Positions 16,345-42,258 of a stretch of 64,000 bases of DNA are shown piece after piece. A program made the translations under genes and the position numbers. The notes under the pieces were generated by a model, which ran no database searches, was not told the DNA's origin, and worked only from the letters and a program-made list of their open reading frames with translations. The first letter of the stretch is position 1. Every line of letters starts with the position of its first letter. Source of the stretch: Streptomyces olivochromogenes (GTDB taxonomy: Bacteria; Actinomycetota; Actinomycetes; Streptomycetales; Streptomycetaceae); NCBI RefSeq assembly GCF_021538895.1, contig NZ_JADDRL010000011.1, positions 1 to 64,000 of the forward strand, in the 5' to 3' direction.

Positions 16345-17269
16345 GTGACCTCCTCCTCCGACTCCCCCGTACCCTCTCGCCGCCCCGCCTGGGCGGGCCG
16401 CAACTACTCGCTGCTGACCGCCGCCGCCATCGTGACGAGTCTGGGCAGCAACGGCGCGCTGGTCGCCGCCGCGTTCGCCGTGCTGGACGCGGGTGGCAAC
16501 GGCGGGGACGTGGGACTGGTGGCGGCCGCCCGCACCCTCCCGCTCGTGCTCTTCCTGCTGATCGGCGGCGCGGTCGCCGACCGGCTCCCCCGGCACCGGG
16601 TGATGGTGGCCGCCAACGCCCTCAACTTCCTCTCGCAGGGCGCCTTCGCGCTGCTCGTGCTGCTCGGTGAGCCGCGGCTCTGGCACATGATGCTGCTCAC
16701 CGCGCTCGGCGGCACCGGTCAGGCGTTCTTCAGCCCGGCCGCGGAGGGCATGCTGATGTCGTCCGTCGACGGGGAACACGCCGGGCGGGCCTTCGCGGTG
16801 TTCCGGATGGGGATGCAGGGGGCGGCCCTGCTGCGGTCCTTCCTCGACGTGAGTCACATTCGGCCGCGCACACCGGGCGACGGCCTGCTCGCCGATCTCC
16901 GGGAGGGCTGGCGGGAGTTCGCGGGCCGGCCCTGGCTGTGGGGCATCGTCGTCCAGTTCTCCGTCGCCAACGCGGTCGTGGGCGCGGCGGACGCGGTCTA
17001 CGGCCCCCTCGTGGCCCGCGACAGCCTGGGCGGGGCGGGCCCCTGGGGTCTGGCGCTGGGCGCGTTCGGCGCGGGCACGGTGGCCGGCGCCCTGGTCATG
17101 ACCCGCTGGAAACCGCGCCGACTGCTCCTCGCCGGCACCCTCTGCGTCTTCCCGCTGGCCCTGCCCTCCGCCGCACTGGCGGTGCCGGTGTCGGCCGGAG
17201 CCCTGTGCGCGGTCATGTTCGCGGCCGGGGCGACCGTGGAGATCTTCGGGGTCTCCTGGATGACCGCGC
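16345..17269 (+). pseudogene. MFS exporter, N-terminal part, interrupted by the integrated element
   Basis: First 308 codons of an EntS-like (MFS_3) drug/siderophore exporter: DRLPRHRVMVAANALNF matches the loop-2/3 motif, and GLLADLREGWREF precedes the second half. At 17266-17269 host sequence stops and element sequence begins; the frame then runs to a chance stop at 17355. The missing C-terminus is at 42244-42516 and rejoins in frame, giving 397 codons. Between MGMQGAALL and RSFLDVSHI (about 16809-16845) the segment that normally holds spans 5-6 seems absent. The gene may therefore already have been damaged before insertion. Confidence 0.85.
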
Positions 17270-17291
17270 AACGCCTTGATGAACGTAACCT
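17253..17291 (+). other. attL (left junction of the integrated element)
   Basis: Left arm CTCCTGG (17253-17259) belongs to attB. The shared core GCGC is at 17266-17269, and the attP arm GAACGTAACCT is at 17281-17291. The arms match the opposite halves at attR, and both rebuilt sites are symmetric about the GC at 17266-17267. Confidence 0.85.
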
Positions 17292-17481
17292 TCCATGCAA
17301 ATTTCGATTTCTGCTTCGCCGGGTCACTTCTTTCGGAGGCAAGCCACTGCTCTAGCCATGTCCGAAATATGTCAAATTTCGTCGCGCCTTGGTCGGCGCC
17401 AAGGGGACAGTCGATACTCGCGCCCAGAGCAGACGCGATGCTGTTCACCTTGCTGTGGCAGCCCTGAACGAGTTCATCCAA
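17266..17481 (-). CDS. Candidate small ORF whose frame crosses the attachment core
   Basis: A TTG-start frame at 17481 overlaps the stop of the NB-ARC gene, suggesting coupling. It reads MDELVQGCHSK to VTFIKALR at the core. In the integrated state it runs on antisense into the MFS gene. In the excised circle it would continue across attP for six codons (TAPLRT) and stop at 42223-42225, ten bases before the integrase ATG, giving about 78 residues. It could be a small regulator or simply open sequence; no family recognised. Confidence 0.3.
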
Positions 17482-19987
17482 GTGGCCCGTGCAGTCTCTT
17501 GGCGTCTTGGTAGGCGCGGCCGAGGTTGCTTCGGCGGGTCAGGGTGTCGGGGTGGTCGGTGCCGAGGATGCGTTCGCTGTCGGCGAGGTTGGACTCGAAC
17601 AGGGCGATGGCCTGCTTGAGGTTTTTGGCGCCCTGGTAGGCGGTTGCGAGGTTGTTGCAGTAGATCAGGGTGTTGGGGTGGTCGGTGCCGAGGATGCGTT
17701 CGCTGTCGGCGAGGTTGGACTCCAACAGGGGGATGGCGCGCTTGAGGTCACCCGCGGCCTGGTAGACGGAGGCGAGGTTGTTGCGGCTGATCAGGGTGTT
17801 GGGGTGGTCGGTGCCGAGGATGCGTTCGCTGTCGGCGAGGACGGACTCGAACAGGGCGATGGCGCGCTTGAGGTCACCCGCGGCCTGGTAGACGGAGGCG
17901 AGGTTGCCTCGGCGGGTCAGGGTGTCGGGATGGTCGGTGCCGAGGATGCGTTCGCTGTCGGCGAGGACGGACTCCAACAGAGGGATGACGCGCTTGAGGT
18001 CACCCGCGGCCTGGTAGACGGAGGCGAGGTTGTTGCGGCTGGTCAGGGTGTCGGGGTGGTCGGTGCCGAGGATGCGTTCGCTGTCGGCGAGGTTGGACTC
18101 CAACAGGGGAATGGCGCGCTTGAGGTCACCCGCGGCCTGGTAGACGGAGGCGAGGTTGTTGCGGCGGGTGAGGGTGTTGGGGTGGTCGGTGCCGAGGATG
18201 CGTTCGCTGTCGGCGAGGACGGACTCCGACAGGGGAATGGCGCGTCTGAGGTCCCCGGCGTCCAGGTATGCGGTTGCGAGGTTGTTGCGGCGGGTGAGGG
18301 TGTCAGGGTGGTCGGTGCCGAGGATGCGTTCGCTGTCGGCGAGGACGGACTCCGACAGGGGAATGGCGCGTCTGAGGTCCCCCGCGGCCTGGTAGACGGC
18401 CGCGAGGTTGGTGCCGCTGGTCAGGGTGGTGCGGTGTCTCTTTCCGAGCAGGCGTTCGTGAATTTGGGCTGCTCGGCTTCCAGCGGCTGTGCCGCGGGCC
18501 AGTGCTCCCTGTTCGAGGTGGAATTGGGACGCTTTCGCCAGAAGCCGAGCGGTGGCGGCTGTTTCCGATTCCGGCGGGGTGTGATCGGTGTGGGCGATGA
18601 CATGGGGCAGCAAGGCATGCCATGTCGGCCAGGCGCCGGGGTCGTCGGCGTCTACAGGAAGGCGGGAGTACAGGGCGTTCGCTGCTACTTGTTGTGCGCT
18701 GGTGATGTCTTTGGCGCGACGGTGGTGATCCTTGGGATCGGGTGTCCGGGCGAGGGCTTGGACCAGCCGGTGCACGGTGATGATGCCGTCCTGTTCGCTG
18801 ATCATGTTGTAGGCGGCCAGCCTGCCAATCGCGGTGTTCAGCGCCTGCGGGTCAGCGAGTTGCTCCATATGGGAGCGGGCGAGCTTGAGAAGCCGGAGAC
18901 GTCGGCCAGTGACCTCCTTTGCGGCTTGAGACCGTAGCTGTGCGGCCGGCTTGCGTATGAGAGATGGATAGGCGAGGTCGTCGAGGAGGTTGCGGGGGAT
19001 ACCATCGGGCGCGTACCAGGCCAGTGCTCGTAGTACCTCTCCCGCCAGCGGGGTGTCCTTGAGCCGGTCGAGGGTGATGCTCCAGATCCGGGCGATCGTG
19101 CGGTCCACGTCTCCGCCCTCTGCGGTCGTGGCGAACATCTCGGCTGGCTTGCTGGTGAGCAGGTCCAGGTAGGCGCGGGGAGACACGCCGGTCTCGGCGC
19201 AGTACGAGGCTGCCTGCTCCACTGCAAGGGGCAGGAAGCCTACCTCCGCGCACACCTCGGCGGCACCGGTGCTGTCCCGTTGCTTCTCGTGAGTGAGGAT
19301 GCCGGTGAACAACTCCACCGCTTCTGCTTCTTCCAGGACGTCCAAGGGGACAGTGGAGGACAACTGGTGCCAGCCGGTGGCACGGCGACTGGTGATGAGG
19401 AAGCGTCCACCGTGTCCGGCCCGCTCAATGACCGGACGGACATGCTGAGGGTCGTCGACGTTGTCCAGCACGATCAGCCAGTTCCGATGAGTAGCGAGCC
19501 ACGACAGGGCCCATCCTCGTAGATCGTCGGCTCCCATCTCCATGCTCGTGAGAACGGGATGAAGAGCGACTGCGAAGTCCGCCAGCCCGGCGTCCAGGGT
19601 GGCGGGTGACTCAGCGGTGATCCACCATTGCGGGGAACTCCGTGATCGCGTCCTGGCCCAGTATGCGGCGAGCGTGGACTTACCGACACCTCCCAGGCCG
19701 TGAAGAGCCTGTACGACCACTTCTCCCGATGTGGCGAACGCCGTATCCAGCGCGTCAAGTTGGCGATCACGCCCGACGAACCCGTGCGGCCGCGGCACAT
19801 TGCTCAGACCGGCCTGCGCCTTCACCCTCGGTGCGCTCTTTAGTGCTCCCGTGGGCAACACCATGTTGTGGGTGTGAAAAGACGTGGCGCGCTTGACATC
19901 ACGGCCCGCCACGATCGAGCCCTTGTCGGCCGACAGACCCGGTGTCCCACCCCCGCGCTTTGTTCGGCTCGGTTTCCGGCGTCCCAC
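17474..19987 (-). CDS. NB-ARC STAND ATPase with C-terminal TPR array
   Basis: 837 residues from GTG 19987, whose G is shared with the TAG of the preceding gene. The N-terminus holds a short glycine-rich motif GSIVAGRDV (23-31), then NB-ARC with P-loop GLGGVGKST (97-105), the Walker B-like LIVLDNVDD, and a winged-helix/MHD-like region containing ITVHRLVQ. The C-terminal third is an array of 42-residue TPRs of the NB-ARC/TPR_12 kind (NNLASVYQAAGDLKRAI, GTDHPDTLT). Such proteins are NLR-like sensors that oligomerise on trigger binding; several in Streptomyces are defence or signalling proteins. No enzymatic effector is fused, so the coupled membrane protein may be the effector. Confidence 0.88.
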   Translation of the reverse strand: MGRRKPSRTKRGGGTPGLSADKGSIVAGRDVKRATSFHTHNMVLPTGALKSAPRVKAQAGLSNVPRPHGFVGRDRQLDALDTAFATSGEVVVQALHGLGGVGKSTLAAYWARTRSRSSPQWWITAESPATLDAGLADFAVALHPVLTSMEMGADDLRGWALSWLATHRNWLIVLDNVDDPQHVRPVIERAGHGGRFLITSRRATGWHQLSSTVPLDVLEEAEAVELFTGILTHEKQRDSTGAAEVCAEVGFLPLAVEQAASYCAETGVSPRAYLDLLTSKPAEMFATTAEGGDVDRTIARIWSITLDRLKDTPLAGEVLRALAWYAPDGIPRNLLDDLAYPSLIRKPAAQLRSQAAKEVTGRRLRLLKLARSHMEQLADPQALNTAIGRLAAYNMISEQDGIITVHRLVQALARTPDPKDHHRRAKDITSAQQVAANALYSRLPVDADDPGAWPTWHALLPHVIAHTDHTPPESETAATARLLAKASQFHLEQGALARGTAAGSRAAQIHERLLGKRHRTTLTSGTNLAAVYQAAGDLRRAIPLSESVLADSERILGTDHPDTLTRRNNLATAYLDAGDLRRAIPLSESVLADSERILGTDHPNTLTRRNNLASVYQAAGDLKRAIPLLESNLADSERILGTDHPDTLTSRNNLASVYQAAGDLKRVIPLLESVLADSERILGTDHPDTLTRRGNLASVYQAAGDLKRAIALFESVLADSERILGTDHPNTLISRNNLASVYQAAGDLKRAIPLLESNLADSERILGTDHPNTLIYCNNLATAYQGAKNLKQAIALFESNLADSERILGTDHPDTLTRRSNLGRAYQDAKRLHGPLG
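17530..18430 (-). repeat. 126-bp repeats encoding nearly identical TPRs
   Basis: About seven consecutive 126-bp units encode 42-residue TPRs that are almost the same in DNA as well as protein. The segment encoding DSERILGTDHP is repeated almost without change. This high identity points to recent amplification or gene conversion and can change repeat number by recombination. Confidence 0.85.
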
Positions 19988-20370: not shown

Positions 20371-20508
20371 GCAGACATGATTCCGAAACCATCACGCCCG
20401 CAAGCCCGTTTTCAGGCAACTGATGTGCAACAGAACACATGCATCCACGCTGTGCCCCAATGATCCAGAGTCTGCATCGCCATCAACGCTGAGTCGACAC
20501 CATCAACA

Positions 20509-22366: not shown

Positions 22367-22543
22367 GTCGCCGTTCCTATGGATGATCCAGGCGCACGGC
22401 AGACACCACGACGGGGCAGGGGACCGTGCAGCCCGAGTGCTCTCTCAGGAACGATCACTCCTGGAACGAACTCCTTGATCCCTCCGTTCCCGACCCCGAC
22501 GAGCCCAACGAACTGCGGGTGGGCACTCCTGAGGGACGACGGT

Positions 22544-22573
22544 TTGATCCATGTCAAGCGGCGCTCACAGACC
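22544..22573 (-). repeat. Dispersed 30-bp repeat, copy 4
   Basis: Reverse-complement copy reading GGTCTGTGAGCGCCGCTTGA then CATGGATCAA. With copy 3 it forms an inverted pair about 180 bases apart. Confidence 0.6.
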
Positions 22574-22818
22574 TTGCTGCGACTGGTGAACCCGGCGGGA
22601 TCAACGCTGGAAAGGGCGACTGCATGGGCGCTGCGACCCGGAGCGGTGATCGCTACCCTTCAGTTACGCTGACCTGCGGGGATGGCCTGAGAGTGCTGCC
22701 TTTGCCGAGTGGATATGCGAGACGGCGATTGCTGGATAGAGTCGTCTCGTTACAGCTGGTTGTGGGGACAACCAAGCTGCCTTTCGGCTGCCACCGTCCT
22801 GGGGAGGGCCTGCAGCAC

Positions 22819-24879
22819 ATGAGTCGTCGCTCTACCGGTCTTGTTGGTGTCTGGGCAGAAATGCAACGACAGCAGCAGCGCCAGCTGGAAGCCGAGGCCA
22901 GACGGCGGAGACAAGAGGAGCAGCAGGCCCGGGCCTACCAGCGCCGAGCCGCGCAGAGCCACCGCGAATATCGTCAGGCAGAAGCCCAACGTCGCACCGA
23001 AGAGCTGGACTCTCAGGTGGTGTCACTCCAAAGCTTTCTCGCTGCCGGGAGCCAGGCACCAGCCTTCACAGCGGCCGCACTGATGCGGACCGAGGAGGTT
23101 CAGCCCTTCTCGCCGGGAGCGTTGGCCTACCCCGTGCCCATGCCACGCCCGGATCAGTACCAGGCACAGGGTGGCTGGACTGCGAGCCGCCGCGCGCAAG
23201 CTCAGGCAGAAGCGCAGGCGCGTTTCGAACGGGACTGGCAGGCTGCACAGACCGCAGAGACTCAGCGCCAGCAGCAGCTTGCTGCATCTCAGAGGGAGTA
23301 CGAGCAGTGGGCCGGCACCCAGCTGGCGGAGGTTCGCAGACACAATGCCGGCGTTCGCGAGGTGACCGAGGGGGTCAGACGCAAAGACCCGGAATCGGTG
23401 GTCGAGTTCTTCTCCGCCGCTCTCTACTCGTCGACCGCATGGCCTGAGGACTTCCCTCGACAGGTGTCTGCGGCCTACGACTCAGCAGCGCGGCAGCTGG
23501 TCCTCGATTGGGAGCTCCCCGGGTACGGCGTGGTCCCCGAAGCGAAGTCCGTGCGGTATGTGTCCTCCCTCGACCAGGACAAGGAGTCCCCTCGCCCGGT
23601 GGGCCAGCGTCGGGCCTTGTACCGAGAGGTCGTCGCGCAGTGCGTGCTTCTCGTCCTGCATGAGCTCTTCGCCGCAGACGCGCAGGGGGCACTTGAGTCC
23701 GTGGCCTTCAACGGGTTTGTGGATGAACACGACCCTACGACCGGCCGACGCGGCCGCATCGTCCTCACGACTGTCATGGCGTCGCGGTCGTCGTTCCGTG
23801 ATCTGCACCTGGCGCAGGTGGACGCGGTCAGTTGCCTGACCGACGGACTGCGAGGGCAGCTTTCGGCACGGCCGGACCAGCTCACCCCAGTACGACCGAG
23901 CCGCCGGCCGCGAGACGTCGGCAACCGCGTTGTCGCTCATGGCAGCGACGAGGAACCGGACCTGTACGACATGGATCCGATCGCATTCGAGAACCTCGTG
24001 GCCGACCTCTTCCGAGCCATGGGGATGCAGGCGGTGACCACCCAGCGCTCCAACGACGGCGGTGTGGACGTCGACGCGCTGGACCCGACCCCGATTCGCG
24101 GCGGCAAGATCGTCGTGCAGGTGAAGCGCTACCGCAACACAGTGCCGCCCACCGCTGTGCGTGACTTGTACGGAACCGTGCAGGATGCCGGCGCCAACAA
24201 GGGCGTCCTCGTGACAACGTCAGGGTTCGGCCCGGGCTCACGCACCTTCGCCAACGGCAAACCGCTGGAACTGATCTCAGGAACGGAGCTCGTAGACCTA
24301 CTGCACCGTCATGGACTGCGTGGGCGACTGGGCGAAGGAAGCCGCCCCACCACGGTGCAACAGACCCCGACAGGCCCGGACACGCCACTGCCCGCCGACT
24401 ACAACATTCTGGGCATGTCATGGACCGGAAGCGTCGCCTTGGACGTTTGCGCTCTCGTCTGCCACGGCAACCGCGTCCTCAGCGATGATCATTTCGTCTT
24501 CTTCAACAACCATCAGACACCCGAGGGCATGGTGCGGGCCCTACCTCCTACTGCACCTGACAAGGCCGCGATCTGCGTCGCCTTCGACGGATTGCCAGAG
24601 GCTGCCGACCGATTCGTACTCGTGGCCGCCATCGACCCAGAGATCAACCCGGACGCGGACCTCTCCGGCTTCACGGACGCGAGCATCCGGCTTCTCGATC
24701 CAAGGATGACCGAACTGGGACGGCTTGAGGTCTCCGACGGCCGGCCCCGCGAGACCGCCTTGGTACTCGGTTCCTTCCGCCGAAGGCCCAACGGCGACTG
24801 GGACTTCGTCCTCGGCGGCAAGGGCTACATGGGCGGCCTGGAGGAACTCGTCGTGGACTACGGCGTCGAAGTGGAGTAG
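22819..24879 (+). CDS. Coiled-coil / Mrr-type nuclease / TerD fusion protein
   Basis: 686 residues from ATG 22819, ten bases after GGGGAGGG; the open frame extends upstream through non-coding repeat DNA and is not used. Residues about 10-200 are a Gln/Glu/Arg-rich coiled coil. A middle domain (about 205-370) is unassigned. Residues 380-510 are an Mrr-type PD-(D/E)XK endonuclease: Glu391 in FENLVADLF, Asp417 in GGVDVDA, Gln434-x-Lys436 in VVQVKRY. The C-terminal 155 residues (from LGMSWTG) are a TerD domain, with DDHFVFFNN and GDWDFVLGGKGYMGG. Mrr domains cut modified or foreign DNA. TerD domains bind calcium and belong to stress and phage-response networks. Likely a defence nuclease. No partner gene overlaps it. 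Confidence 0.85.
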   Translation: MSRRSTGLVGVWAEMQRQQQRQLEAEARRRRQEEQQARAYQRRAAQSHREYRQAEAQRRTEELDSQVVSLQSFLAAGSQAPAFTAAALMRTEEVQPFSPGALAYPVPMPRPDQYQAQGGWTASRRAQAQAEAQARFERDWQAAQTAETQRQQQLAASQREYEQWAGTQLAEVRRHNAGVREVTEGVRRKDPESVVEFFSAALYSSTAWPEDFPRQVSAAYDSAARQLVLDWELPGYGVVPEAKSVRYVSSLDQDKESPRPVGQRRALYREVVAQCVLLVLHELFAADAQGALESVAFNGFVDEHDPTTGRRGRIVLTTVMASRSSFRDLHLAQVDAVSCLTDGLRGQLSARPDQLTPVRPSRRPRDVGNRVVAHGSDEEPDLYDMDPIAFENLVADLFRAMGMQAVTTQRSNDGGVDVDALDPTPIRGGKIVVQVKRYRNTVPPTAVRDLYGTVQDAGANKGVLVTTSGFGPGSRTFANGKPLELISGTELVDLLHRHGLRGRLGEGSRPTTVQQTPTGPDTPLPADYNILGMSWTGSVALDVCALVCHGNRVLSDDHFVFFNNHQTPEGMVRALPPTAPDKAAICVAFDGLPEAADRFVLVAAIDPEINPDADLSGFTDASIRLLDPRMTELGRLEVSDGRPRETALVLGSFRRRPNGDWDFVLGGKGYMGGLEELVVDYGVEVE

Positions 24880-24929: not shown

Positions 24930-25020
24930 CAGCCACGCTCGCAGCCGACTTCTTGATCCTTGGGATGTCCTGGCCCCGCGCGCAACACCTCGGTGAAAGT
25001 AACCCCTTGCCTCGCGCCCC

Positions 25021-26888: not shown

Positions 26889-29800
26889 TCACTGAGCGAA
26901 CCATTTCTCTCGGTTCGCTGTACGAAGAACAGGCCTACTCTTCTTAGCAGTGGAGCGCAAGATTGTCTCGGCCGAACGCATAACGATATCCGCTGTCAAC
27001 TGCCCCGGCTGAACGAGCTGCATACATACGGGTCGAAGCATTCTCTTGTCGGCCGCCGATGAGGGAGAGGGCAAGTCACCTTGAGTCAAAACCTCGGGCA
27101 AATAAAACTTCTTCACAGCCCGGAAGAACTCGTCCTCGCTAATATGACTTGCTGCCAGTCTTTGCCAGGCGTACGAGATCAGCCGACCTGCCAGTTCCGG
27201 AGCCATGTCTTGAGTGGCGCGTTTACTCAACACTCGGTCCTTAGCAGCCCCAGCCGGGAATCTCTGGAAGAAAATAGACAGCATGCGCGAGGAAAGATTG
27301 ACTGACCGAAACCATGAGGCCGGACAACGCACTTCCTCTCGCAGGCGGTCTCGCATTACGAAACGACTTTTCTCCGCTAGCCGGAACAAGCGGTTGAATG
27401 ATGCCTGCGAGACCGCATTCAAGCAGGCTTCGAACTGCACCCAGATTTCGCTGAGAGTGGTAGCACTAGCCCAGCAATAGGCAGCAGACAGCCATCGCTC
27501 ACGCGTTTCAGCAGTACTTGCCAGCTCAAGCTGACCTAGCCACCAATCAGCCTGCTTCGATTTCCGTTTTGCATATCGAATGCAGTCACACGAAGAATGC
27601 TCTTGGGAGAACAACCCGTCAACCCCAACTACACGTTCATCATTCGCCTTTACGTGACCTGACATCAATGAAATCAGCCAGGTGTTCCACGTCGGGCCGA
27701 ATTCCCGCTCCATGTGCTCGACGTAGAAGCGCCACGCGTCTAGGTTCTCTTGAAGTGAATCAGGGTTTCTACTAACCACGAATTCGGCAATCTCAAACAG
27801 AGAAGCAGTGCAGGACTGGTCCTGGATCTGTTCACGGCGGGGTAGCTGCACGAAAACCCCAGGGGACATGCTTTGCAGCGCATACGACCACAGAGCTGTA
27901 GAAGTAATACCGAGAACTCGAGAGAGTGGTGAATCATCAGAGCTGGTGGAGTACTGGTTCGGGCTGTTGAGTACAGCTAGTACCACTTCTCGCTCTCGCG
28001 CGTCAGGTACCGTGGGGCCCGCCCAGGGGGAATTCAGTGAAGCAGCGAGCAGCTCGGAATCCTCATCAGAAGAGAAGGTACTTGGAGCAATATCAGCTTT
28101 CTGTAGTCGCATCCATCTAGCGATGTCGAGGAGCTTCATCCTCTCACTGATTCTGGCTGATCGATACTCCTCTTGCCACCGATCTCGCAAGGAATCCCGC
28201 ATGTCTACTTGCTTGCCTAGAACGTGTGCCAGCGCCCTTACATCTTCTACCTGAGCAGCTGAAAAAAGTCGACTAACCTTCGTCTCCACCAAGTACTTAC
28301 TGCCGATTTTTTTCGACAGAGCCAAATCGAATGAAATAGCTTGCCACGGCGACCTACCAAGTTGCACATCCGCCAGGTAGCTAGAGCGGATGCCATAATC
28401 ATCGAATACCTTATCGATGACCTTTTCCGTTGCTAGGTTCGACTGAGAAAATACCCAGTCCTGCAAGAGCGCCAGCGCTAGCGCACGAGGGTAGTAGTTT
28501 CCTTGCATTTCCGGTGCATCACAGAGAGAGCAAACACGTTCAGCTAGATCAAGAAGTTCGCCCTGCGTAAAGCAACCAGCAAAAAATCGAGTTACGTTCA
28601 TCCAATAAGGATTACGGGCGATGCCATCAAATCGGTCAGGCTTCGTACCGTGGCCAACACTGGTGGCCGGCACGTAGGGAGCCGTATCGTAGAGGTATCT
28701 CGCGGCAAAATATTCACGAAGTGGCTGAACTTCGAATTCGTACGTGCCCTCAACACGCGATACGAGAGCCACAACCCTTTCAACTACTCCGGTAAGAAGT
28801 GAGTCTAGTGCCCCCTCGGCCTCTTTATGCCGGACTAGGTACTCTTTTACGACTCGTGTCAGTTCTTCTTGCGTGATCCGCCCTGTGGTGCGGCTACTCT
28901 CAGCCTGTGAGTGCATGTAATACGCAAGATGCTGGTGGAGGTTGACGAGCAGAACCCGATGCTCCCGCACCACAGCGCTCTTCTCAACTTCTCGATTAAA
29001 GAAACTATCGATATAGGCGTCATAGAGCTCTGTACGCTTGTCAGGAAGACTTGATCCCCGATGGTAAATGAGACTCAGCAAAATGGATAGTTGCATGGTG
29101 TTCTTTGCCAACTCAGCCATATGTGGAGCCGACAGCTTTTGATCAAGAGTGTTCCCGATATCTTCGATATCGGCCTTTCGTAGCTTTCTGGCTTTTCCCC
29201 ATTTTTGTGCGTACGTCGAGGCGAGCCCTGTCGGGATCGGAGCAAGTGAAAGGTACTCAAATAGATTGTGCGGAAAAGACGGAGCCCCGGCGACCGCAGT
29301 AGGTCTACTTGTAACCAAAACCTTCAGATTTTCAGCGCCCTGGCGGAGACGAGCTACCCCTGCCACCACTTCTTCGACGACAGCCCGTCTATCGTCCATG
29401 TCCGCAACTTCATCGAGTGCATCAAGAATCAACAGGACTGGACGCGCTTGGATCACAAAGGCCAAATCGGCAACGTTGAAAGAGAATCCACCGGAGTACT
29501 TTTCTACGTGTCCTGCTACGGCGCCTTCGAGGGTACTCGGCTTCGCATGGGTGGTGTTAGGGGCACCGGCCCAAGGATCTACTCCTTTAATCCAGGAGGC
29601 TAGATCTCGTAGTTCAATCTTCAGTGGAAGCATGACCGCAGTCCCCTCATGTTCAGCAGGGACCCGCTTCAGGTCTTCTTTACGATCAAGGATACGAAGC
29701 CTTTGCAGTTGGGCTAGATACTGCGAAAGCGTCGTTTTTCCCTGTCCCGGTGCCCCCTCAAGTACAATGAATGGGTAGTTATCATTGAAGCGGGAATCTA

Positions 29801-31904: not shown

Positions 31905-32819
31905 ATGGCGGTTGACGCTGCTCGGTCGGAAGAGGGGTTCACGTCGGCGAGGGCTGCGCGGGTGATGAGTGCCGCGTGTCGGTTGGCCGGTCTGGATGAC
32001 GGAGGGGCGGAGCTGATCCGCCTAGGGGAGAACGCTCTGTTTCGTCTGGCATCAGCACCGGTGATCGTGCGTGTGGCCCGCGGGGAGGAGTGGCTACCCA
32101 AGGCTCGGGTTGAGGTGGGCGTGTCGCGGTGGCTGGCCAGCGAGGACTTTCCTGCCGCTCGCCTGGTCGATGGCTTGGAGCAGCCGTTCTTGGTCGAGGG
32201 TCATCCGGTTACGTTTTGGCGTCTCATCGTCGAGGGCGGCCGCAAGGCGACCTACGGGGAACTGGGCGGCGTCCTGCGTGACCTGCACTCCATGGCGTTA
32301 CCGGATGGACTTGAGTTGCCTTCGTTCAATCCCTTCGACAAGCAAGAACTGCGGGTCAGCCGCGCCGTGATCCCGGAAGACGACAAGCTCTTCCTCCGTA
32401 AGCGGTGGCAGGAACTGCGCGATCAGTACGAGGCGTTGGAGTTCGTGACGCACAAGGGGCCAGTGCACGGTGATGCTCATGTGCAGAACCTCATGGTGAA
32501 CGACCAGGATGAAGTGATCCTGATCGACTTCGAGGCATTCTGCTTCGATCACCCCGAATGGGACTTGATGGTCACGGCCACAGAGCATCACAGCCTTGGG
32601 TGGCAGACGGAAGCGCAGTACAGAGACTTCGTGCGTGCGTACGGCCGGGACCTGTACGACTGGTACGGATACGACACGCTTCGCAGGCTGCAAGAGTTCG
32701 GCATGACGACCTGGCTCATGCAGAACGTGCAGGAAGACCAGGAAACAGAAGCCGAGTACCGCCGGCGCATCGCTGGGTTGCGCAACGATGACGCGCCTCG
32801 AGACTGGCGGCCCTGGTAG
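31905..32819 (+). CDS. Aminoglycoside-phosphotransferase-family kinase
   Basis: 304 residues with the APH/choline-kinase fold. The catalytic loop is VHGDAHVQNLM and the metal-binding motif is LIDFEAF. The N-terminal lobe has VIVRVARG in the ATP-binding strand. The family phosphorylates aminoglycosides, homoserine, choline and other small molecules; the substrate here is unknown. GGGGAG precedes ATG 31905 by about 11 bases. It ends three bases before the end of the convergent regulator gene. Confidence 0.8.
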   Translation: MAVDAARSEEGFTSARAARVMSAACRLAGLDDGGAELIRLGENALFRLASAPVIVRVARGEEWLPKARVEVGVSRWLASEDFPAARLVDGLEQPFLVEGHPVTFWRLIVEGGRKATYGELGGVLRDLHSMALPDGLELPSFNPFDKQELRVSRAVIPEDDKLFLRKRWQELRDQYEALEFVTHKGPVHGDAHVQNLMVNDQDEVILIDFEAFCFDHPEWDLMVTATEHHSLGWQTEAQYRDFVRAYGRDLYDWYGYDTLRRLQEFGMTTWLMQNVQEDQETEAEYRRRIAGLRNDDAPRDWRPW

Positions 32820-32822
32820 CTA

Positions 32823-34199
32823 CTAGTCGTCGTCTTCGTCCAGGCGGGCGAGCGCGTCGTGCACCTTCTCCTGGAAGGCGGCCACGGCGGGGTCCGTCGT
32901 ATGGACGCTCACCTCGTTCTGGAAGTCGGTCACGTAGCGCTGAAAGCGGGTGGACTGGAGGGAGTCTCCGCCGTCGACTGCGAGGCTCGCGGTGGTGACG
33001 GCAGCTTCCAACTCACCGTTCAGTAGCTGGCTTTGGGCGAGCACCATTCGGCAGAACCCGAGTGTTCGGGCGTACTTTGGGTCTGTACTGTCGACGGCTC
33101 GCTGGGCTTGCTCAACCGCCTCTCGGCGCATCTTTAAGTCGCGGAAACAATGGCAGAGTTCGCCCATGAGTTCGGCTTCATCGAAGTAGCTGAGCCATGC
33201 CGGGTCTTCGGCGGTGTCGGCGCGTTCGAAGTGGCGTTCCGCCTCGTTCATGACGCGGCCTGCTCCGATTGGGTCGCCTGCGTTGGACAGAGCGCGGGCT
33301 TCCATGGCCGAGTAGTTCGCCATGGCGCGTGGGGTGGCTCGGCCTTTGGCTCCCTCGACTGCGGCGCGGGACAGTTGGATGGCCTGGGCGTGGTTGCCGA
33401 GGTAGTTGGCCTGGTGGCTGAGGTTGCCGAGGATGCGCGCGCCGAACATACGGTCGTCGATGACCTGGGACAGGCGCAGTGTGGACATGAGGTAGCGATG
33501 GGCGAGCCTGTGGTTTCCGGCGTCGTAGGCCGTCCACGCGAGCAGCTGGGAGACTTCGGCGGCGGCGCCGTATAACGCGGTGCCGACCTTTTCGCTGTAG
33601 CTCGCGCCCAGGAGGGGCAGTACTTCGTGGCGGAAGTAGTGGCGTAGGGCCTTGTGGCCGTGGCCTCCGCCGTACTTGAAGTCGAGTGCCATGAACGTTC
33701 CGGCGGCATCTCTGATCGCGCGGACGTCACGGATGCCGACGCGTTGGTGAGCGGGCCTGTCCTGTTGGATGCCGTCAGGTCGGGAGATCATCCATGACAG
33801 GACGGCGGAACTCAGATCGGCGTCGGCGATGGTCAGTTGGTCCGGTGCGGGGACGTCGGCACGTTCCTGGGCGAGTCCGTCAAGCATGGACAGGACATCG
33901 GGAACCATACGCGGGTATCCGACCGGCTCGGGTGCAGTCGAGTTGGTGTGATCGAAGAACCCGAGATCGCCCGGCGTGATGCGGCGTCCGAGTTTGACCG
34001 AGAGGACGGCAGCCATGATCGCCGATGTCTGAGGCTTGATGCCGGCTCCGTCGCGCCATCGCTTTACGGCAATGTGCGTGGTCCCGAGGTCGATGCCGCG
34101 CTCGGCGGCCTCGTCCGTCATGCGCTTGGCCAGCCCCTTGTTGGAGACCTGCGCTTCGTCCATGACAGCGATCAACTGCGCGTTCGGCTCTCGGCTCAT
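32823..34199 (-). CDS. HTH regulator with TPR-like C-terminal region
   Basis: 458 residues. The first about 85 residues form a Cro/XRE-like helix-turn-helix (NKGLAKRMTDEA, THIAVKRWRDG). The rest is helical repeats (LAHRYLMSTLRLSQ, AIQLSRAAVEGA, AVEQAQRAVDST), the layout of Streptomyces regulators that pair with small ATP-binding or DUF397 proteins. It is divergent from the ATP-binding protein gene at 34407. The shared region has two GTTCA/TGAAC palindromes that may be its own operators. Confidence 0.75.
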   Translation of the reverse strand: MSREPNAQLIAVMDEAQVSNKGLAKRMTDEAAERGIDLGTTHIAVKRWRDGAGIKPQTSAIMAAVLSVKLGRRITPGDLGFFDHTNSTAPEPVGYPRMVPDVLSMLDGLAQERADVPAPDQLTIADADLSSAVLSWMISRPDGIQQDRPAHQRVGIRDVRAIRDAAGTFMALDFKYGGGHGHKALRHYFRHEVLPLLGASYSEKVGTALYGAAAEVSQLLAWTAYDAGNHRLAHRYLMSTLRLSQVIDDRMFGARILGNLSHQANYLGNHAQAIQLSRAAVEGAKGRATPRAMANYSAMEARALSNAGDPIGAGRVMNEAERHFERADTAEDPAWLSYFDEAELMGELCHCFRDLKMRREAVEQAQRAVDSTDPKYARTLGFCRMVLAQSQLLNGELEAAVTTASLAVDGGDSLQSTRFQRYVTDFQNEVSVHTTDPAVAAFQEKVHDALARLDEDDD

Positions 34200-35945: not shown

Positions 35946-36725
35946 TCAGGCGCGGGTGCGTCGCGTGGGCTCTTTGTCGGCGGTGATCCGGTAGGCGAGT
36001 TCGGCACGGTCCGCGCCGAAGCGGAGCTCTTCGAGGATCAGGGGGCGGTCGTCGCTGCCGTGCGCGACGCGGAAGACATGCAGGACCGGGGTCGCGTCCG
36101 GGAGCTGGAGCGTGGTTCGTTCGTCGGGCAGAGGCATGCGGGCTCGTACCGTCTCGGTCCAGGACAGTTTCTGTCCGTCCTGGGTGAGCAGCCGGTAGAT
36201 CGCGGCTGGGCGCTTGCAGGGCTCCTCGGCGAGCAGGGGGACGGTTTCGGCGACCTCGAAGGGGATCAGGGTGCGGTGCATGGCCCGCGTCCCGGTGGTC
36301 GGGTCGACGAGCAGTCGGTCGCACCCGAACAGTGCCTCCTCCTCGGCGAGTTGGAGGAGTCGGCCGGTGGCCTTGGTGGTGCGGGTGCGGTAGGTGCTGG
36401 GCTCCTCGGCCTCTTGCCAGATGTCGCCGTTGGGCATGACGAAGCGGCCGTCGGTGGTGCGGCTGATGCGGCGCTCGATGGTGAGGGCGGGCTGTCCGTC
36501 GGAGCGTACGAAGCTGCCTTTGCCGTGGCGGACGTCGATGAGCCCTTCCGCGCGCAGGGCCGCGATGGCGTTGCGGACGGTGGGGCGCGATACCCCGTAA
36601 CGCGTCATGAGCTGGGCCTCGGACGGAAGCAGGGAGTCGGGCGCGAACTCGCCGGACAGGATCGCTTCGCGGATCGCGGCGGCCACCTGCTGGTAGAGGG
36701 CTCCGGGGCGCTGGATCTCTGACAT
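35946..36725 (-). CDS. GntR/HutC-family repressor of the transfer module (KorSA-like)
   Basis: 259 residues from ATG 36725 (MSEIQRPGALYQQV). The winged helix reads LLPSEAQLMTRYGVSRPTVRN. The C-terminal half is a UTRA ligand domain (RADRAELAYRITADKEP at the end). In pSAM2 the homologous KorSA represses pra and so keeps the element silent. Position here is the same: divergent from an SCO3933-type gene that heads the transfer genes. An earlier Met ten codons upstream is possible. Confidence 0.85.
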   Translation of the reverse strand: MSEIQRPGALYQQVAAAIREAILSGEFAPDSLLPSEAQLMTRYGVSRPTVRNAIAALRAEGLIDVRHGKGSFVRSDGQPALTIERRISRTTDGRFVMPNGDIWQEAEEPSTYRTRTTKATGRLLQLAEEEALFGCDRLLVDPTTGTRAMHRTLIPFEVAETVPLLAEEPCKRPAAIYRLLTQDGQKLSWTETVRARMPLPDERTTLQLPDATPVLHVFRVAHGSDDRPLILEELRFGADRAELAYRITADKEPTRRTRA

Positions 36726-36889
36726 CTCGGCATCTCCGGGTGAGGTCGTAGGCACGTCGCACGCGCGACATCACTCGTCAGCATAAGTAGTTGCATCCCC
36801 GTCGTACAGGACTTCATAGTCATAACTCGTTAGGACAAGTGACGTCAGGTCGAGTCTGACGTCGTGAGTGGCCAAGGAGGCCAAAGAAC
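36726..36889. promoter_or_regulatory. Divergent control region of the transfer module
   Basis: About 164 bases between the GntR gene and the 36890 gene. It is AT-richer than its surroundings. Two similar blocks, GTACAGGACTTCAT and GTTAGGACAAGTGA, resemble GntR half sites. GGAGG lies nine bases before the 36890 ATG. Confidence 0.45.
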
Positions 36890-37240
36890 ATGCAGTCCAT
36901 TCCCGTGGACACGGCGCGCCTGGGCGTACTGCGGTGCGCCATCGCGCCCGAAGCGAAGATCACCAACTCCGAGACACAGGAGGTGAAGAGGGACCGGGAC
37001 GGCAACCCGGTCTGGACCGTCGCCGTCACCGTCCGCCAGGACGGCCGGCGCATCTCTGTCATCGAGATCGCCGTCAGCGGCCAGCCCAAGGGCATCGAAG
37101 AGGGGCAGATCGTCAAGGTCACCGGCCTGACGGCGTTCATGTGGTCGATGGGCGACCGGCACGGCGTCAGCTTCCGCGCCGACGCGATCACACCCGTACA
37201 CGGCGGCCCGGCGGCGCACGCGAAGGGCGGTGACGCGTGA
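36890..37240 (+). CDS. SCO3933-family regulatory/transfer protein
   Basis: 116 residues, mostly beta (VWTVAVTVRQDGRR, ISVIEIAVSG, GQIVKVTGLTAFMWSM). It matches the small protein that precedes the tra gene in many Streptomyces integrative elements and is annotated as SCO3933-family regulatory protein. Strong ribosome site. Its TGA overlaps the GTG of the translocase gene, so they form an operon. Confidence 0.75.
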   Translation: MQSIPVDTARLGVLRCAIAPEAKITNSETQEVKRDRDGNPVWTVAVTVRQDGRRISVIEIAVSGQPKGIEEGQIVKVTGLTAFMWSMGDRHGVSFRADAITPVHGGPAAHAKGGDA

Positions 37241-38541
37241 TGGGGCCGATCCTGCTCGCCTTCGCGCTCGCCGTACTGGCCTGGCTGCTCGTCCTCGGTG
37301 ACCTGGTGCGCCGGCACCGTCCGGCCTGGCACTGGTACCTGATCGGCTACCCGGCCACCACGTTCCGGGTGCTGGTGACCTGGCGAAAGGTCGCGCTGCT
37401 CAACGACCTCACCGTCTCCCACCGCCCGTCGCGTGGGCTGCTCGGGGACCTGGTCGTCAAGGGCGATCCGCTGCGGCCGGTGACTCCGCGGCTGTCCTTC
37501 CCCAGGGCGAACCGCCTTGGCCTGACCGTGGCTGTGCGCCTGCACGCGGGTCAGACTCCGGCGACGTACATGAAGGCGGCGGACGCGCTGGTGCACGCGT
37601 GGAAGGTCCACGCGGTCCGGGTCACCTCACCGGAACGTGGGTTCGTGTTGCTGACTGCCACGGCGACGGATCCGCTTCAGCGGCCGGGCTTAGCCACGGC
37701 TCCTGCCGAACTTCTCTCGGCGCTCATCGGTGTTCTGGAGAGCGGCGGGGCCTGGGTGATGAACCTGCGGCTCGTGCCGCACTGGCTCATCGCCGGGGCC
37801 ACCCGCTCGGGTAAGTCCACCCTGCTGGCCCGGCTGATCACCCAACTCGCGACGCAGCGGGTCGCTCTGGTCGGCATCGACTGCAAGGGCGGCATGGAAC
37901 TCGGCCTGTTCGCGGGGAGGTTGAGCGCGCTGGCCACCTGCCGCAGGGAAGCGGTCGCCGTGCTCTCGGCCCTGGTCGTCGACATGCAGGACCGGATGAG
38001 CGCGTGCCGGTCGGCCGGAGTCCGCTCGATCTGGGAGCTCCCGGACAAGCTGCGGCCGGTACCGGTCGTCGTGATCGTCGACGAGATCGCGGAACTGTAC
38101 CTCGCCGACGGCACCCGCGAAGGCAAGGCAGAGGCGGAGCAGTGCTCGACGCTCCTGCTCCGCCTGGCGCAGCTCGGTGCCGCGCTCGGCATCCACCTGG
38201 TCGTCGCCGGCCAGCGAGTCGGCTCCGACCTCGGCGCCGGCGTCACCGCCCTGCGGGCCCAACTCGGCGGCCGCATCTGCCACCGCGTCAACGACCCCGG
38301 CACCGCCGAAATGGCCTTGGGTGATCTGAACAAGGACGCCGTGGCTGTCGCCCAGTCGATCACGGCGCAGGAACGCGGCGTGGCCGTGTGCACCGGGCCG
38401 GACGGCGGTTGGAGCCGCGCTCGCTCCCACCTCACCTCCACGGATGAGGCCGTGGCGATCACGAGGAAGTACGCGGGGATGACCCCGAACCTGCCCGCAG
38501 TCGGCGCCGCCCTCGCGGCCCTGGAAGGAGACGGCAAGTGA
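37237..38541 (+). CDS. FtsK/SpoIIIE-type DNA translocase (TraB/TraSA-like)
   Basis: 434 residues (GTG 37237 or ATG 37240). An N-terminal membrane span (ILLAFALAVLAWLLVLGDLV) is followed by a RecA-like motor: Walker A GATRSGKST, Walker B VVVIVDEIAE. In actinobacterial elements this single protein forms a hexameric pore and moves double-stranded DNA to the recipient; no relaxase is needed. The size is at the small end of the family, as in pSAM2-type elements. Start and stop overlap both neighbours. Confidence 0.9.
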   Translation: MMGPILLAFALAVLAWLLVLGDLVRRHRPAWHWYLIGYPATTFRVLVTWRKVALLNDLTVSHRPSRGLLGDLVVKGDPLRPVTPRLSFPRANRLGLTVAVRLHAGQTPATYMKAADALVHAWKVHAVRVTSPERGFVLLTATATDPLQRPGLATAPAELLSALIGVLESGGAWVMNLRLVPHWLIAGATRSGKSTLLARLITQLATQRVALVGIDCKGGMELGLFAGRLSALATCRREAVAVLSALVVDMQDRMSACRSAGVRSIWELPDKLRPVPVVVIVDEIAELYLADGTREGKAEAEQCSTLLLRLAQLGAALGIHLVVAGQRVGSDLGAGVTALRAQLGGRICHRVNDPGTAEMALGDLNKDAVAVAQSITAQERGVAVCTGPDGGWSRARSHLTSTDEAVAITRKYAGMTPNLPAVGAALAALEGDGK

Positions 38542-38735: not shown

Positions 38736-38754
38736 TCCGGAAGGACGCACGGCT

Positions 38755-38868
38755 ATGCCTATGCCTCGCGTGAGGTGCCCGCACTGCAAGGGCGACGGAG
38801 CCCGCAAGACCTGGACCGGCCGCGTTAGGCGCTGCCGTGTCTGCCGGGGCACCGGCACCATCCGCTGA
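38755..38868 (+). CDS. 37-residue double CxxC zinc-ribbon protein
   Basis: Reads MPMPRVRCPHCKGDG, then CRVCRGTGTIR. Two CxxCxGxG units like the DnaJ zinc-finger pattern are packed into 37 residues. AAGGA stands eight bases before ATG 38755. Tiny proteins of this kind sit between spd and rep genes in such elements; the role is not known. Confidence 0.65.
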   Translation: MPMPRVRCPHCKGDGARKTWTGRVRRCRVCRGTGTIR

Positions 38869-38905
38869 ACCAGCACCACCCGACCACCCACCGGAGGTGA
38901 TCCCC

Positions 38906-40404
38906 ATGGACACCGGCGCACCACCACCCACCACCGACCATGCCGCTTCGGCGGCCCACCCCGGAAGGTCACCACCATCACCCCGGACTTCACCCCGGCT
39001 GACAGGCGCGCCGCCCTCGATCGCGCGGCGCGCCTGCGTCAGCTCCCGGAAACAGACCGCGACGCCATCCACCTCGCCCAAGGCCCGAACTTTCCCCGAC
39101 TACTGGAGCAGATCACCGCAACCGGCGGCTGCTCCCACCCCGTCCACCTATCCGGCTCCACCACCACCCTGGACGGCACGACCGGCGAGCTCCTTCATCA
39201 CTACGACACCAGTGACGAACCCGGGGAACGCCTCCTCGTCCGCTGCCGCAACCGACGAGCAACCGTCTGCCCAGCCTGCTCCCGCCTCCACGCCGGAGAC
39301 ACCTTCCAGCTGGTCCGCGCCGGCCTCCTCGGCGGCAAGAACATCCCCGCCGCAGTCCGCCACCGTCCCCGGCTCTTCGTCACTCTGACCGCCCCCTCCT
39401 TCGGCCCGGTCCACCGCGCGGGAGAGCCGTGCCATCCCCGCAGGAATGGCGGCGTCTGCGAGCACGGCTGGCCCCTCGGCTGCGGCGTCGTCCACGCCCC
39501 GGATGCCCTGCTCGTCGGCCAACCGCTCTGCCCCGACTGCTATGACTACTCCGCCCATGTGCTGTGGCACGCGCACGCCTCCAAACTGTGGGACCGATTC
39601 GTCATCGACGTCCGGCGGCGCCTCGCCTCATCCGTCGGCCTCGTACAGTCCCACTTCGCCCGACACGCCCGGCTGTCCTTCGCCCGCGTCGCCGAATACC
39701 AGAAGCGGGCGGCCGTCCACGTGCACGCCGTGGTTCGCCTCGACGGCCCGTCTGGGCCCGACGACGAACCCCCGGTCTGGGGCACCCCGGAACTGCTCAT
39801 CGACGCCGTACGCGCCTCCGCCCGGCGCGTCCTGGTCCGCACGCCCTACAACCCCGCCGTGGGGGAACTGGAACTCCGCTGGGGCGCCCAGCTCGACGTC
39901 CGGCCACTTCGCGCCAAGAGCAATGGCCCCGATGACGACGCCGTGGCCGCGTACGTGGCCAAATACGTCACCAAGGGAGCGAGTGAGACAGGCGCCGGCC
40001 TCGACCACCCGCTCACCACCTGGACCGACATCACCACCGCATCGGTCAGTACACACGTGCGCACCCTCATGCGCGCCTGCTGGCGCCTCGGCGGCCTACC
40101 CGAGTACGAACCCCTCCGCCTCCGGGCCTGGACTCACACTCTGGGCTACCGCGGCCACATCCTCACCAAATCCCGCGCCTACTCCACCACCTACGCGGCA
40201 CTCCGCGCCGAACGAGCGCACCACATGGGCCACGACCACGTCCCCGGCGCGGTCACCGAACGGCAATGGCGCTACGCGGGCTCTGGCCACACCCCCGGCG
40301 CAGCCCTCATTGCTGCCGGTGTCGCCGAAGACATCGCCACGAATCGAGAGATCACCAAGTCCCTGGCGGCTGAGTGGGGGTGGCTGGGTGCCGCGTCCGC
40401 ATGA
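38906..40404 (+). pseudogene. RepSA-like rolling-circle initiator, frameshifted near its start
   Basis: ATG 38906 has a strong site (GGAGG, eight bases) but its frame holds only to about 38970. The Rep body lies one frame back and is open from there to TGA 40404, with no ATG or GTG before 39559. It reads DRAARLRQLPETDRDAIHLAQ, RCRNRRATVCPACSR, and the HUH-like VHVHAVVRLDG, then AYVAKYVTKGA with the likely catalytic Tyr. A one-base loss in the GGCGGCCCACCCCGG stretch explains it. A true -1 ribosomal slip or a sequencing error are alternatives. If real, conjugative replication would be impaired. Confidence 0.8.
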
Positions 40405-40578: not shown

Positions 40579-42213
40579 CTACTCCTCGGCCCAGACCGGA
40601 ACCAACCGGTCACGCAGGGGCACTCGCCGTCCACTCCCGACAGGCAGCGCAACCAGGGCCGTCAGCGTCCTCGCGACGTATGACCGACGCTCAGCCAGTG
40701 TGATTCCGTCCCTGTCCCACTCCTCGGCCATATCCACGGGCTCGCCCTGGTCCACGAGCATCTTGCGCTGCCACGCGTTGCGCTCCCTCTTTAGCCGCTG
40801 CTCCTCGGCCTCGTACTCGGCGAGATCGGAGTAGTACCGTTCGGCGCTGATCTTCCGATCACGGCGGGCCTTCTTGAGGTCGGAGAGGTCCTCACGGACC
40901 AACGCCAGTTCGGCCTCCTTCGGCCACACCTCCGGCGCCTTGACGGCTTGCCGCTGGCTGGCTTCTTCCTCGTACCTCGCGATCACCAGTTTGCGGATTA
41001 GTTCGTCTGTCTCTGGCCCGGGGAGCTTGACCCCGCCGCATCCCCTGCCCGTGGTCTTCGCCGGGCAGACGTAATAGAAGTAGCCTTCCGGCTTGCCCCG
41101 GCTCGGCGCAGCCTTCATCGCGCGCAGCAACGAGCCGCAGCCCTCCTTGCCGCAGCGAAGGGTGCCGCTGGCAAGGTAGACGCGTGTGTTGTGGCTGCCC
41201 CCACGCATCGGACCGTCGCCGATGATCTCTTGGATAGCCTCCCACTCGGCCACCTCCAAGATCGGCGTCCACTGGCCCTTGACCGGCTCGCCCTGGTCAT
41301 CGTGCGCGGTCGTCAGATGCCTGATTTCTCGGCCTGACTCCGGATCGAACTCGATCACGACGTGAGATCGATAGCCGCACAGCCGCGGATTCCGCATCAT
41401 GTCCCTGAGACCGATCCACGTCCACGGGTTGCCCTTGGACGTGGTGATCCCCTGGCGGTTCCAGTCGGCTACGATCGCGTGCCACTCAACGCCCAGGATG
41501 ATGCGCTTCACCGCTTCCCGGATGTGCTGAGCCTCGCGCGGGTTCAGGGTGCGCTTGTCCTCATCCCACCCGAACGGGCGAGTGCCGCCTACTGGTATGC
41601 CCCGGTCCCGCCTCGCCTTGTGGTTGCGGCGCACTCGGCGGGCCGTGTCGGCGGACTGCTTGTTGGCCATGGCGACCACTACGCGGGCCATGGCTCGCCC
41701 GTTGTCGGTCAGCAGGTCCAAGGTGCCTGTGATGTCGATGATCGGCCGGTGGTAGTGCTCCACGGTCTCGATCGCGTCTTCGAGGTGCCGGGGGTCGCGG
41801 GTCAGACGGTCGATGTCGTAAACGATCAGGCCGTCGATGCGCTCGCCATTTGGGGCCTTCGCCTGCTTCAGGTCCTCCAACGCGCCCTCGTACACGGGCC
41901 GTACGACGCGATACCCGATGCTGCCGTCCGGCAGGCGCACGCGCCGGCGCTTCCATGCCGAGGTGTCCGGCTCCATGTACGTGTACACGTACCGTCCGCC
42001 TCGGCTCTCGACGAACTGACGGCCGTCCCTCTCCTGCTCCTCGGTGCTCTTGATGTCCCTGCCGGTCATGAACCTGGGGCCGGAACGCCCTTCTAAGCTG
42101 TCGTCAGAAGCAAGTTCGCCCTCAGCTTCCTCGGTCGACAGACGGGCCAGCCCTGCCCAGTTCTGGCCTTCGAGGTTTCCCCAGTGCGCTCGCTGTACCA
42201 AGTCGTCAGACAT
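40579..42213 (-). CDS. int: Large serine integrase
   Basis: 544 residues. The resolvase-type catalytic domain has Ser26 in ARLSTEEAEG, then YDIDRLTRDPRHLED and GTLDLLTDNGRAM. The recombinase domain follows (GGTRPFGWDEDKRTL). A zinc ribbon (LRCGKEGCGSLL ... CPAKTTGRGCGG) precedes a long coiled coil (about 440-505) and a basic C-terminus. Such enzymes join attP to attB through a 2-bp centre without other sequence match. The ATG at 42213 lies seven bases from the attP arm, with no good ribosome site. Integration moves its upstream DNA to the other end of the element. Confidence 0.93.
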   Translation of the reverse strand: MSDDLVQRAHWGNLEGQNWAGLARLSTEEAEGELASDDSLEGRSGPRFMTGRDIKSTEEQERDGRQFVESRGGRYVYTYMEPDTSAWKRRRVRLPDGSIGYRVVRPVYEGALEDLKQAKAPNGERIDGLIVYDIDRLTRDPRHLEDAIETVEHYHRPIIDITGTLDLLTDNGRAMARVVVAMANKQSADTARRVRRNHKARRDRGIPVGGTRPFGWDEDKRTLNPREAQHIREAVKRIILGVEWHAIVADWNRQGITTSKGNPWTWIGLRDMMRNPRLCGYRSHVVIEFDPESGREIRHLTTAHDDQGEPVKGQWTPILEVAEWEAIQEIIGDGPMRGGSHNTRVYLASGTLRCGKEGCGSLLRAMKAAPSRGKPEGYFYYVCPAKTTGRGCGGVKLPGPETDELIRKLVIARYEEEASQRQAVKAPEVWPKEAELALVREDLSDLKKARRDRKISAERYYSDLAEYEAEEQRLKRERNAWQRKMLVDQGEPVDMAEEWDRDGITLAERRSYVARTLTALVALPVGSGRRVPLRDRLVPVWAEE

Positions 42214-42219
42214 ACAAAG

Positions 42220-42258
42220 AGGTTACGTTCGCAGGGGTGCTGTGCGCTGCACCAGGAG
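42220..42258 (+). other. attR (right junction of the integrated element)
   Basis: AGGTTACGTTC (42220-42230) is the exact inverse of the arm at attL. The core GCGC is at 42244-42247 and the host arm CCAGGAG at 42252-42258. Confidence 0.85.

What the first reader, a model, noticed from the sequence alone, without database searches (positions are those of the whole stretch)
17253..42258. Exact ends of a 25-kb serine-integrase element, with attB and attP rebuilt
Joining host flanks gives attB with CTCCTGG and CCAGGAG arms 14 bases apart. Joining element ends gives attP with perfect 11-bp arms (AGGTTACGTTC at 42220; GAACGTAACCT at 17281) 28 bases apart. Both are centred on the same GC dinucleotide within the shared GCGC. 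The break restores one MFS reading frame. The target is a protein gene rather than a tRNA, and the carrier is a pSAM2-like element, which normally uses a tyrosine integrase.
Basis: partly seen in the sequence, partly recalled or inferred. Interest (0 to 1): 0.85.

Follow-up and report, generated by a model that had tools for sequence, protein, structure and literature searches.

The report
Serine-integrase element with symmetric joining point
A 25-kb Streptomyces mobile element sits inside a transporter gene with exact serine-integrase ends; because the two DNA bases at its joining point read the same on both strands it would likely insert in either direction, and a third end inside it suggests that it was likely built in more than one step.

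Summary
The ends are real. Joined flanks give attB, joined element ends give attP; both centre on GC at 17266-17267/42244-42245. The MFS gene is uninterrupted in 30 of 30 loci read, 7 with the identical 28-bp attB core. S. bicolor and S. luteolifulvus carry related elements at the same site and breakpoints. The carrier is a pSAM2-like AICE (RepSA, FtsK-type Tra, GntR) with a serine integrase; serine-integrase AICEs in protein genes are already in print.

Two things were missed. (1) Every 2-bp overlap possible in the shared block (GCGC; CGCGC in S. luteolifulvus) is palindromic, whereas serine-integrase orientation is normally fixed by an asymmetric dinucleotide. GC is the start of a conserved alanine codon. 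A decayed copy in S. sporangiiformans looks inserted the other way round; four sibling elements with core CT all face one way. (2) The island is composite: a third, hybrid B-GC-P' site lies at 24980, scoring like the true ends. S. luteolifulvus has one further clear internal site and one marginal one.

Best reading: an orientation-tolerant serine-integrase AICE whose left end keeps scars of successive insertions. Orientation freedom rests on one decayed copy plus published rules; nothing was tested at the bench.

The parts
16345..17265 (+). N-terminal half of the interrupted MFS transporter gene (lacks 31 residues present in relatives)
42246..42516 (+). C-terminal remainder of the MFS gene
17253..17265 (+). 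B half-site (arm CTCCTGG) on the MFS N side
17266..17267 (.). attL core dinucleotide GC, first two bases of a conserved alanine codon; shared block with attR is 17266-17269 GCGC
17268..17291 (+). P' half-site with arm GAACGTAACCT (outer left end)
17474..19987 (-). NB-ARC/TPR protein, cargo of the 7.7-kb left module (17268-24979)
22426..24879 (+). Mrr-type nuclease plus TerD domain protein (PADLOC type IV restriction model, 3.5e-58), cargo
24967..24979 (+). B''-like half-site (TCCTGG in the same register as attB) left of the internal core; 76% similar over 111 bp with a site in genome G032
24980..24981 (.). internal core GC of the hybrid B''-GC-P' scar
24982..25005 (+). internal P' half-site, score 19.7 against 20.3 and 23.3 for the two outer ends; 41 bp 93% identical with the S. 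bicolor left end
26889..30674 (-). NACHT-domain protein, cargo
31905..32819 (+). APH-family kinase-like protein
32823..34199 (-). NsdA-family regulator
35946..36755 (-). GntR/UTRA regulator (KorSA-like by position; name recalled)
37237..38541 (+). FtsK/SpoIIIE-type DNA translocase (Tra)
38869..40401 (+). RepSA replication initiator open stretch (no ATG/GTG/TTG before 39559)
40579..42213 (-). large serine integrase, 544 aa
42220..42243 (-). P half-site with arm AGGTTACGTTC, 6 bp before the integrase start
42244..42245 (.). attR core dinucleotide GC
42246..42258 (+). B' half-site with arm CCAGGAG

Best explanation
This is a pSAM2-like integrative element whose large serine integrase likely joined attP to attB at a palindromic GC in an alanine codon of an MFS gene, so that insertion would be possible in either orientation. 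The join point, the arms and the empty site are shown by sequence. By the published rule that the central dinucleotide alone sets orientation, P and B halves with a GC core are predicted to pair in parallel or antiparallel with equal right; the decayed S. sporangiiformans copy, with integrase and rep reversed and a P'-like arm joined to the MFS C half exactly at GC, is the one natural case that looks like the antiparallel product. The island is composite: a second hybrid attL (B''-GC-P') at 24980 splits it into a 7.7-kb left module and a 17.3-kb unit that carries the integrase, Tra and Rep. Inferred: the newer unit entered a secondary attB'' inside an older element, and either integrase-mediated exchange of that attL with the old attR plus re-entry, or homologous recombination between the two alike right halves, removed the rest and left the old left end as a scar.
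For: attB/attP dyads on one GC; three elements, same breakpoints, shared blocks GCGC, GCGC, CGCGC, in which every 2-bp overlap is palindromic; uninterrupted MFS in 30 of 30 loci, GC kept in 27. Reversed copy: int fragment and rep in reverse order and strand between host flanks, arm-GC-MFS join; arm nearer P' than P by 3.6 to 7.6 nats, mismatches 6, 6, 5 to P' against 7, 7, 9 to P. Sibling elements in a K+-channel gene with core CT: 4 of 4 in one orientation. Internal site: 19.7, not used to build the matrix, against 12.8 for the best match without att context in 1.16 Mb of held sequence; only three sites with at most one mismatch in the window's 10.25-Mb genome, the third being this one; TCCTGG register found at 16 of 15,062 GC sites. 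S. luteolifulvus: further sites at L047 3002 (14.0) and 3680 (12.9). Rule: symmetric core mutants of A118 gave both deletion and inversion products (PMC3556126 section 13; PMC3783163 passages).
Against: Only one reversed copy, decayed: integrase N part, the other junction and most of the MFS N half are gone, 3.4 kb is inserted, and a separate 7-kb host inversion starts just beyond it. The window's P-side attR aligns without gaps to its arm over 246 bp at 80%, and P and P' differ little, so the arm call is moderate. Three of four copies face the same way. S. luteolifulvus 3680 scores barely above background. Excision, the RDF and expression were not examined. Two distant relatives may also have palindromic cores (TA in L103, CG in L108), read from one end only.
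Confidence: 0.62

Rival explanations
1. An ordinary serine-integrase AICE that integrates in one orientation; the GC core is a harmless accident and the S. sporangiiformans remnant is a normal insertion scrambled later by an inner inversion and deletions.
For: Three of four copies share one orientation; the remnant is decayed and its neighbourhood carries a separate 7-kb inversion; its arm is only moderately closer to P'.
Against: The remnant's junction is exactly at GC, no integrase start follows its arm, and both int and rep are reversed. No source of orientation other than the core is known in the papers seen.
Confidence: 0.26
2. The site at 24980 is not a scar of integrase action but a chance or recruited look-alike, and the 25-kb island moves as one unit.
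For: The outer ends 17266 and 42244 alone rebuild a perfect attP; S. bicolor has no second left site above 4.9.
Against: Score 19.7 against 12.8 for the best match without att context in 1.16 Mb, third best in its own genome after the two ends, with an attB-like half on the other side and 41 bp matching the S. bicolor end.
Confidence: 0.05
3. The left modules are cassettes in their own right, mobilised in trans by the integrase, with a conserved 3' end, as in integrons.
For: Window 24900-25008 and a site in genome G032 share 111 bp at 76% around the B''-GC-P join although the genes before them differ.
Against: The two S. luteolifulvus segments (753 and 678 bp) do not share that 3' end on inspection and hold no clear gene; a shared secondary attB would look the same.
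Confidence: 0.07

Closest known systems
pSAM2-type AICEs (actinomycete integrative and conjugative elements)
   Same: RepSA initiator, FtsK/SpoIIIE-type translocase, GntR regulator, integrase next to one end
   Different: Serine instead of tyrosine integrase, MFS gene instead of tRNA, 4-bp instead of long shared att block
Serine-recombinase AICEs of Mycobacterium, Segniliparus and Frankia (e.g. Faln2929; PMC3218068, passages)
   Same: Serine integrase on an AICE, inserted in a protein gene in several cases
   Different: Their core dinucleotides and orientations were not seen by me; here the core is palindromic and the island composite
Large serine integrases such as A118, Bxb1 and phiC31 (PMC3556126, PMC3783163)
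   Same: Resolvase, Recombinase and zinc-ribbon domains; imperfect inverted-repeat attB and attP with a common 2-bp centre
   Different: Those have asymmetric cores (A118 GG, phiC31 TT in the texts seen; Bxb1 GT recalled); here GC. Nearest phage matches are about 31% identical
Composite SCC islands of staphylococci (Ccr serine recombinases; recalled)
   Same: Successive elements stacked at one target with internal att sites
   Different: Different recombinase family and host; NCBIfam CcrB model matched only far below its cut-off (32 of 900 bits)

Membership tests
Large serine integrase | Resolvase N domain, Recombinase domain and zinc-ribbon domain | tested here: met
   Pfam Resolvase 49.8 bits, Recombinase 44.9 bits above cut-off; Zn_ribbon_recom 24.9 bits, just under its 25.3 cut-off
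Large serine integrase | attP and attB as different imperfect inverted repeats sharing a short centre | tested here: met
Large serine integrase | Asymmetric central dinucleotide that fixes orientation (usual, not definitional) | tested here: not met
   GC at the dyad centre; all overlaps in GCGC/CGCGC palindromic
Large serine integrase | Zinc-ribbon motif 5 bp nearer the centre in attB than in attP (A118 rule) | tested here: inconclusive
   Simple identity at shifts 0-10 showed no clear peak at 5
Large serine integrase | Integrates attP into attB and excises with an RDF | not testable with these tools
   needs bench work
AICE (pSAM2 type) | RepSA-type replication initiator | tested here: met
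   PF20199 500 bits, E 7.5e-150
AICE (pSAM2 type) | FtsK/SpoIIIE-type translocase | tested here: met
   PF01580 93 bits
AICE (pSAM2 type) | Site-specific integrase of tyrosine or, less often, serine type | tested here: met
   serine type; serine AICEs in PMC3218068
AICE (pSAM2 type) | Insertion at a tRNA 3' end (usual for the tyrosine type) | tested here: not met
   0 tRNA genes in the window
AICE (pSAM2 type) | Conjugative transfer | not testable with these tools
   needs mating tests

The most novel reading that the evidence does not exclude
A natural serine integrase that has given up orientation control: by choosing the GC of a conserved alanine codon it inserts either way round, and its loose use of secondary GC sites lets successive elements stack up and leave P' scars at one locus.
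Probability: 0.45. Interest if true: 0.75.

Novelty: new variant of a known kind. Interest (0 to 1): 0.55.

Why it matters
The rule that a serine integrase's two central bases alone set orientation comes from engineered sites. A native palindromic core would be a natural experiment on it, and a simple two-plasmid test decides it. If true, orientation control is dispensable in nature, directionality tools could be checked against a wild case, and the scars give a readable history of element succession at one locus.

Tried and rejected
Zinc-ribbon shift test: no clear peak, not used. Search of viral contigs with the integrase found no relative; phages and plasmids gave only matches under 60% identity. 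The second genus search with another centre drew the same genomes under new handles (against 17) and adds nothing. Cores read from one end (20 loci): GC in the three MFS elements and in the SnoaL-like remnant L034 (a second register gives AC there); non-palindromic GG, CT (four K+-channel loci), GG, GA, AA, CT (a second register gives AA), AA, GA, GG, AG in the others; TA (L103) and CG (L108) would be palindromic; L104 had no usable register there and is dropped. Far ends (8 relatives and 3 controls): firm for L100 (AA) and L101 (GA), 19 of 24; L005, L106 (15 of 24), L098 and L099 (14 of 24) have the right core but scores that chance windows also reach; L013 and L104 gave only weak core matches. 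So palindromes may not be rare in this family. K+-channel empty site: my pattern picked out 1 of 12 loci. Integron-like cassettes: considered, see rivals. Pattern search for att half-sites: 76 of 179 genomes match with up to 2 mismatches, most of them 2-mismatch hits that I take for chance; of the 1-mismatch hits outside the window I looked at G032 and both of G040, not at G125. MFS loci with odd frames: G119 is uninterrupted, G063 is broken elsewhere.

Full report
Observation. The window's left junction reads CTCCTGGATGACC-GC-GCAACGCCTTGATGAACGTAACCT and the right one AGGTTACGTTCGCAGGGGTGCTGT-GC-GCTGCACCAGGAG. Joining host flanks gives attB with arms 14 bp apart, joining element ends gives attP with perfect 11-bp arms 28 bp apart, both centred on the first GC of the only shared block, GCGC. 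Random joins at GCGC words gave such arms in 2 of 400,000 trials; one unrelated perfect 11/28/11 repeat occurs at 3136. The joined MFS reads through in one frame.

Empty and filled sites. A genus search with the MFS N half matched 133 of 199 genomes at E up to 1e-40. In the 29 best relatives' loci plus L049 the gene is uninterrupted in 30 of 30; the core position is GC in 27, AC in 2, TC in 1, and 7 have the rebuilt 28-bp core exactly. GC is the start of the alanine codon in W-M-T-A-L-H-Q-E. Integrases 89% and 95% identical in S. bicolor and S. luteolifulvus sit at the same place, integrase start next to the MFS C half, with shared blocks GCGC and CGCGC. Close relatives are few in the genomes reached: 29 of 392 genus genomes have any integrase match at 1e-60, most of them at 34-58% identity; 12 of 394 family genomes at 1e-90; 8 of 296 relatives at 1e-70. 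A protein search listed 120 of 260 hits, the nearest a 93% cluster of 42 sequences without context.

What it is. The element carries a RepSA initiator (PF20199, 500 bits), an FtsK/SpoIIIE translocase, a GntR regulator and a three-domain serine integrase: a pSAM2-like AICE. Cargo includes NB-ARC/TPR, Mrr-TerD and NACHT proteins. Serine-integrase AICEs in protein genes are described in PMC3218068 (passages only), so this part is not new. The same rep/tra backbone, 86% identical over 4.8 kb, occurs in L006 with an integrase only 58% identical and another target: integrase and att sites are exchanged as a module.

Palindromic core. In GCGC and CGCGC every 2-bp overlap (GC, CG) is its own reverse complement. 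PMC3556126 section 13 (read) reports that A118 sites with a symmetric core gave 64.5/35.5% and 52.5/47.5% deletion/inversion, and concludes that the native asymmetric GG alone sets direction; PMC3783163 (passages) says the sites synapse equally in both alignments but only the parallel one yields products.

Natural test. In S. sporangiiformans (L008/L094) the host genes upstream and the MFS start are followed by integrase residues 236-544 on the MFS strand (two frames), 3.4 kb of other DNA, rep on the opposite strand, then AGGTTACATTCCACGAGGTGTTGT-GC-GTTGCATCAGGAG and the MFS C half. In the window int and rep have the reverse arrangement. The arm has 6, 6 and 5 mismatches to the three P' halves and 7, 7 and 9 to the three P halves (log ratio 3.6 to 7.6 nats), and no integrase start follows it. 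I read this as an insertion in the other orientation that later lost its left junction. Against: it is one decayed copy, BLAST pairs its arm with the window's P side, and a 7-kb host inversion (window 42583-49642) begins just beyond. As a contrast, four elements of sibling integrases in a K+-channel gene have core CT, read from both ends, and 4 of 4 share one orientation.

Composite island. Scanning for half-sites found a third site in the window at 24980: GGGATGTCCTGGCCCCGC-GC-GCAACACCTCGGTGAAAGTAACCC. It scores 19.7 (ends 20.3 and 23.3) against at most 9.4 in 20 shuffles and 12.8 for the best match without att context in 1,162,177 bases of fetched, partly overlapping sequence. In the whole 10.25-Mb genome only the two ends and this site match with at most one mismatch. 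Its left half has TCCTGG in the attB register (16 of 15,062 GC sites), and 41 bp match the S. bicolor left end at 93%. So it is a hybrid attL. S. luteolifulvus has two more in the same direction, 753 and 678 bp apart, scoring 14.0 and 12.9; the second is marginal. S. bicolor has none. The window's site shares 111 bp at 76% with a site in genome G032, so B'' may be a recurrent target. How the older right half was lost (site-specific exchange or homologous recombination) is not shown.

How general. Cores read from one end in 20 loci are mostly non-palindromic, but TA and CG appear in two distant relatives; among far ends sought in 8 relatives only AA and GA are firm. A close P' with core TC lies in another gene of G040. 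Palindromes may thus not be avoided in this family.

Verdict. What is of interest is the native symmetric core and the scars, both directly testable.

Noticed in passing
38869-40401: The RepSA frame has no ATG, GTG or TTG before 39559 although the Pfam match begins about 39091; the same layout is seen in L048 and L004. A rare start codon or a frameshift from the overlapping ORF is possible.
   Followed up: partly
16345-17262: The MFS N half lacks 31 residues present in three relatives, in frame: decay after the insertion.
   Followed up: yes
17474-30674: NB-ARC/TPR, Mrr-TerD and NACHT proteins side by side: likely defence cargo.
   Followed up: partly
L006 against window 35586-40351: Rep/tra backbone 86% identical while the integrases are 58% identical and the targets differ: integrase/att module swapping.
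   Followed up: partly
L034, L126, L127: A P half-site with core GC and the integrase start survive in a SnoaL-like gene in three genomes: remnant of an older insertion at a second target.
   Followed up: partly
L093 15023-15346: A second, diverged K+-channel gene lies inside the element that interrupts the K+-channel gene of G183; it may replace the broken host gene.
   Followed up: no
L094/L113: A 7-kb host segment (window 42583-49642) is inverted in S. sporangiiformans just beyond the MFS C half.
   Followed up: partly
L191 2877-2902: A P' half-site much like that of S. bicolor but with core TC in another gene of G040.
   Followed up: no
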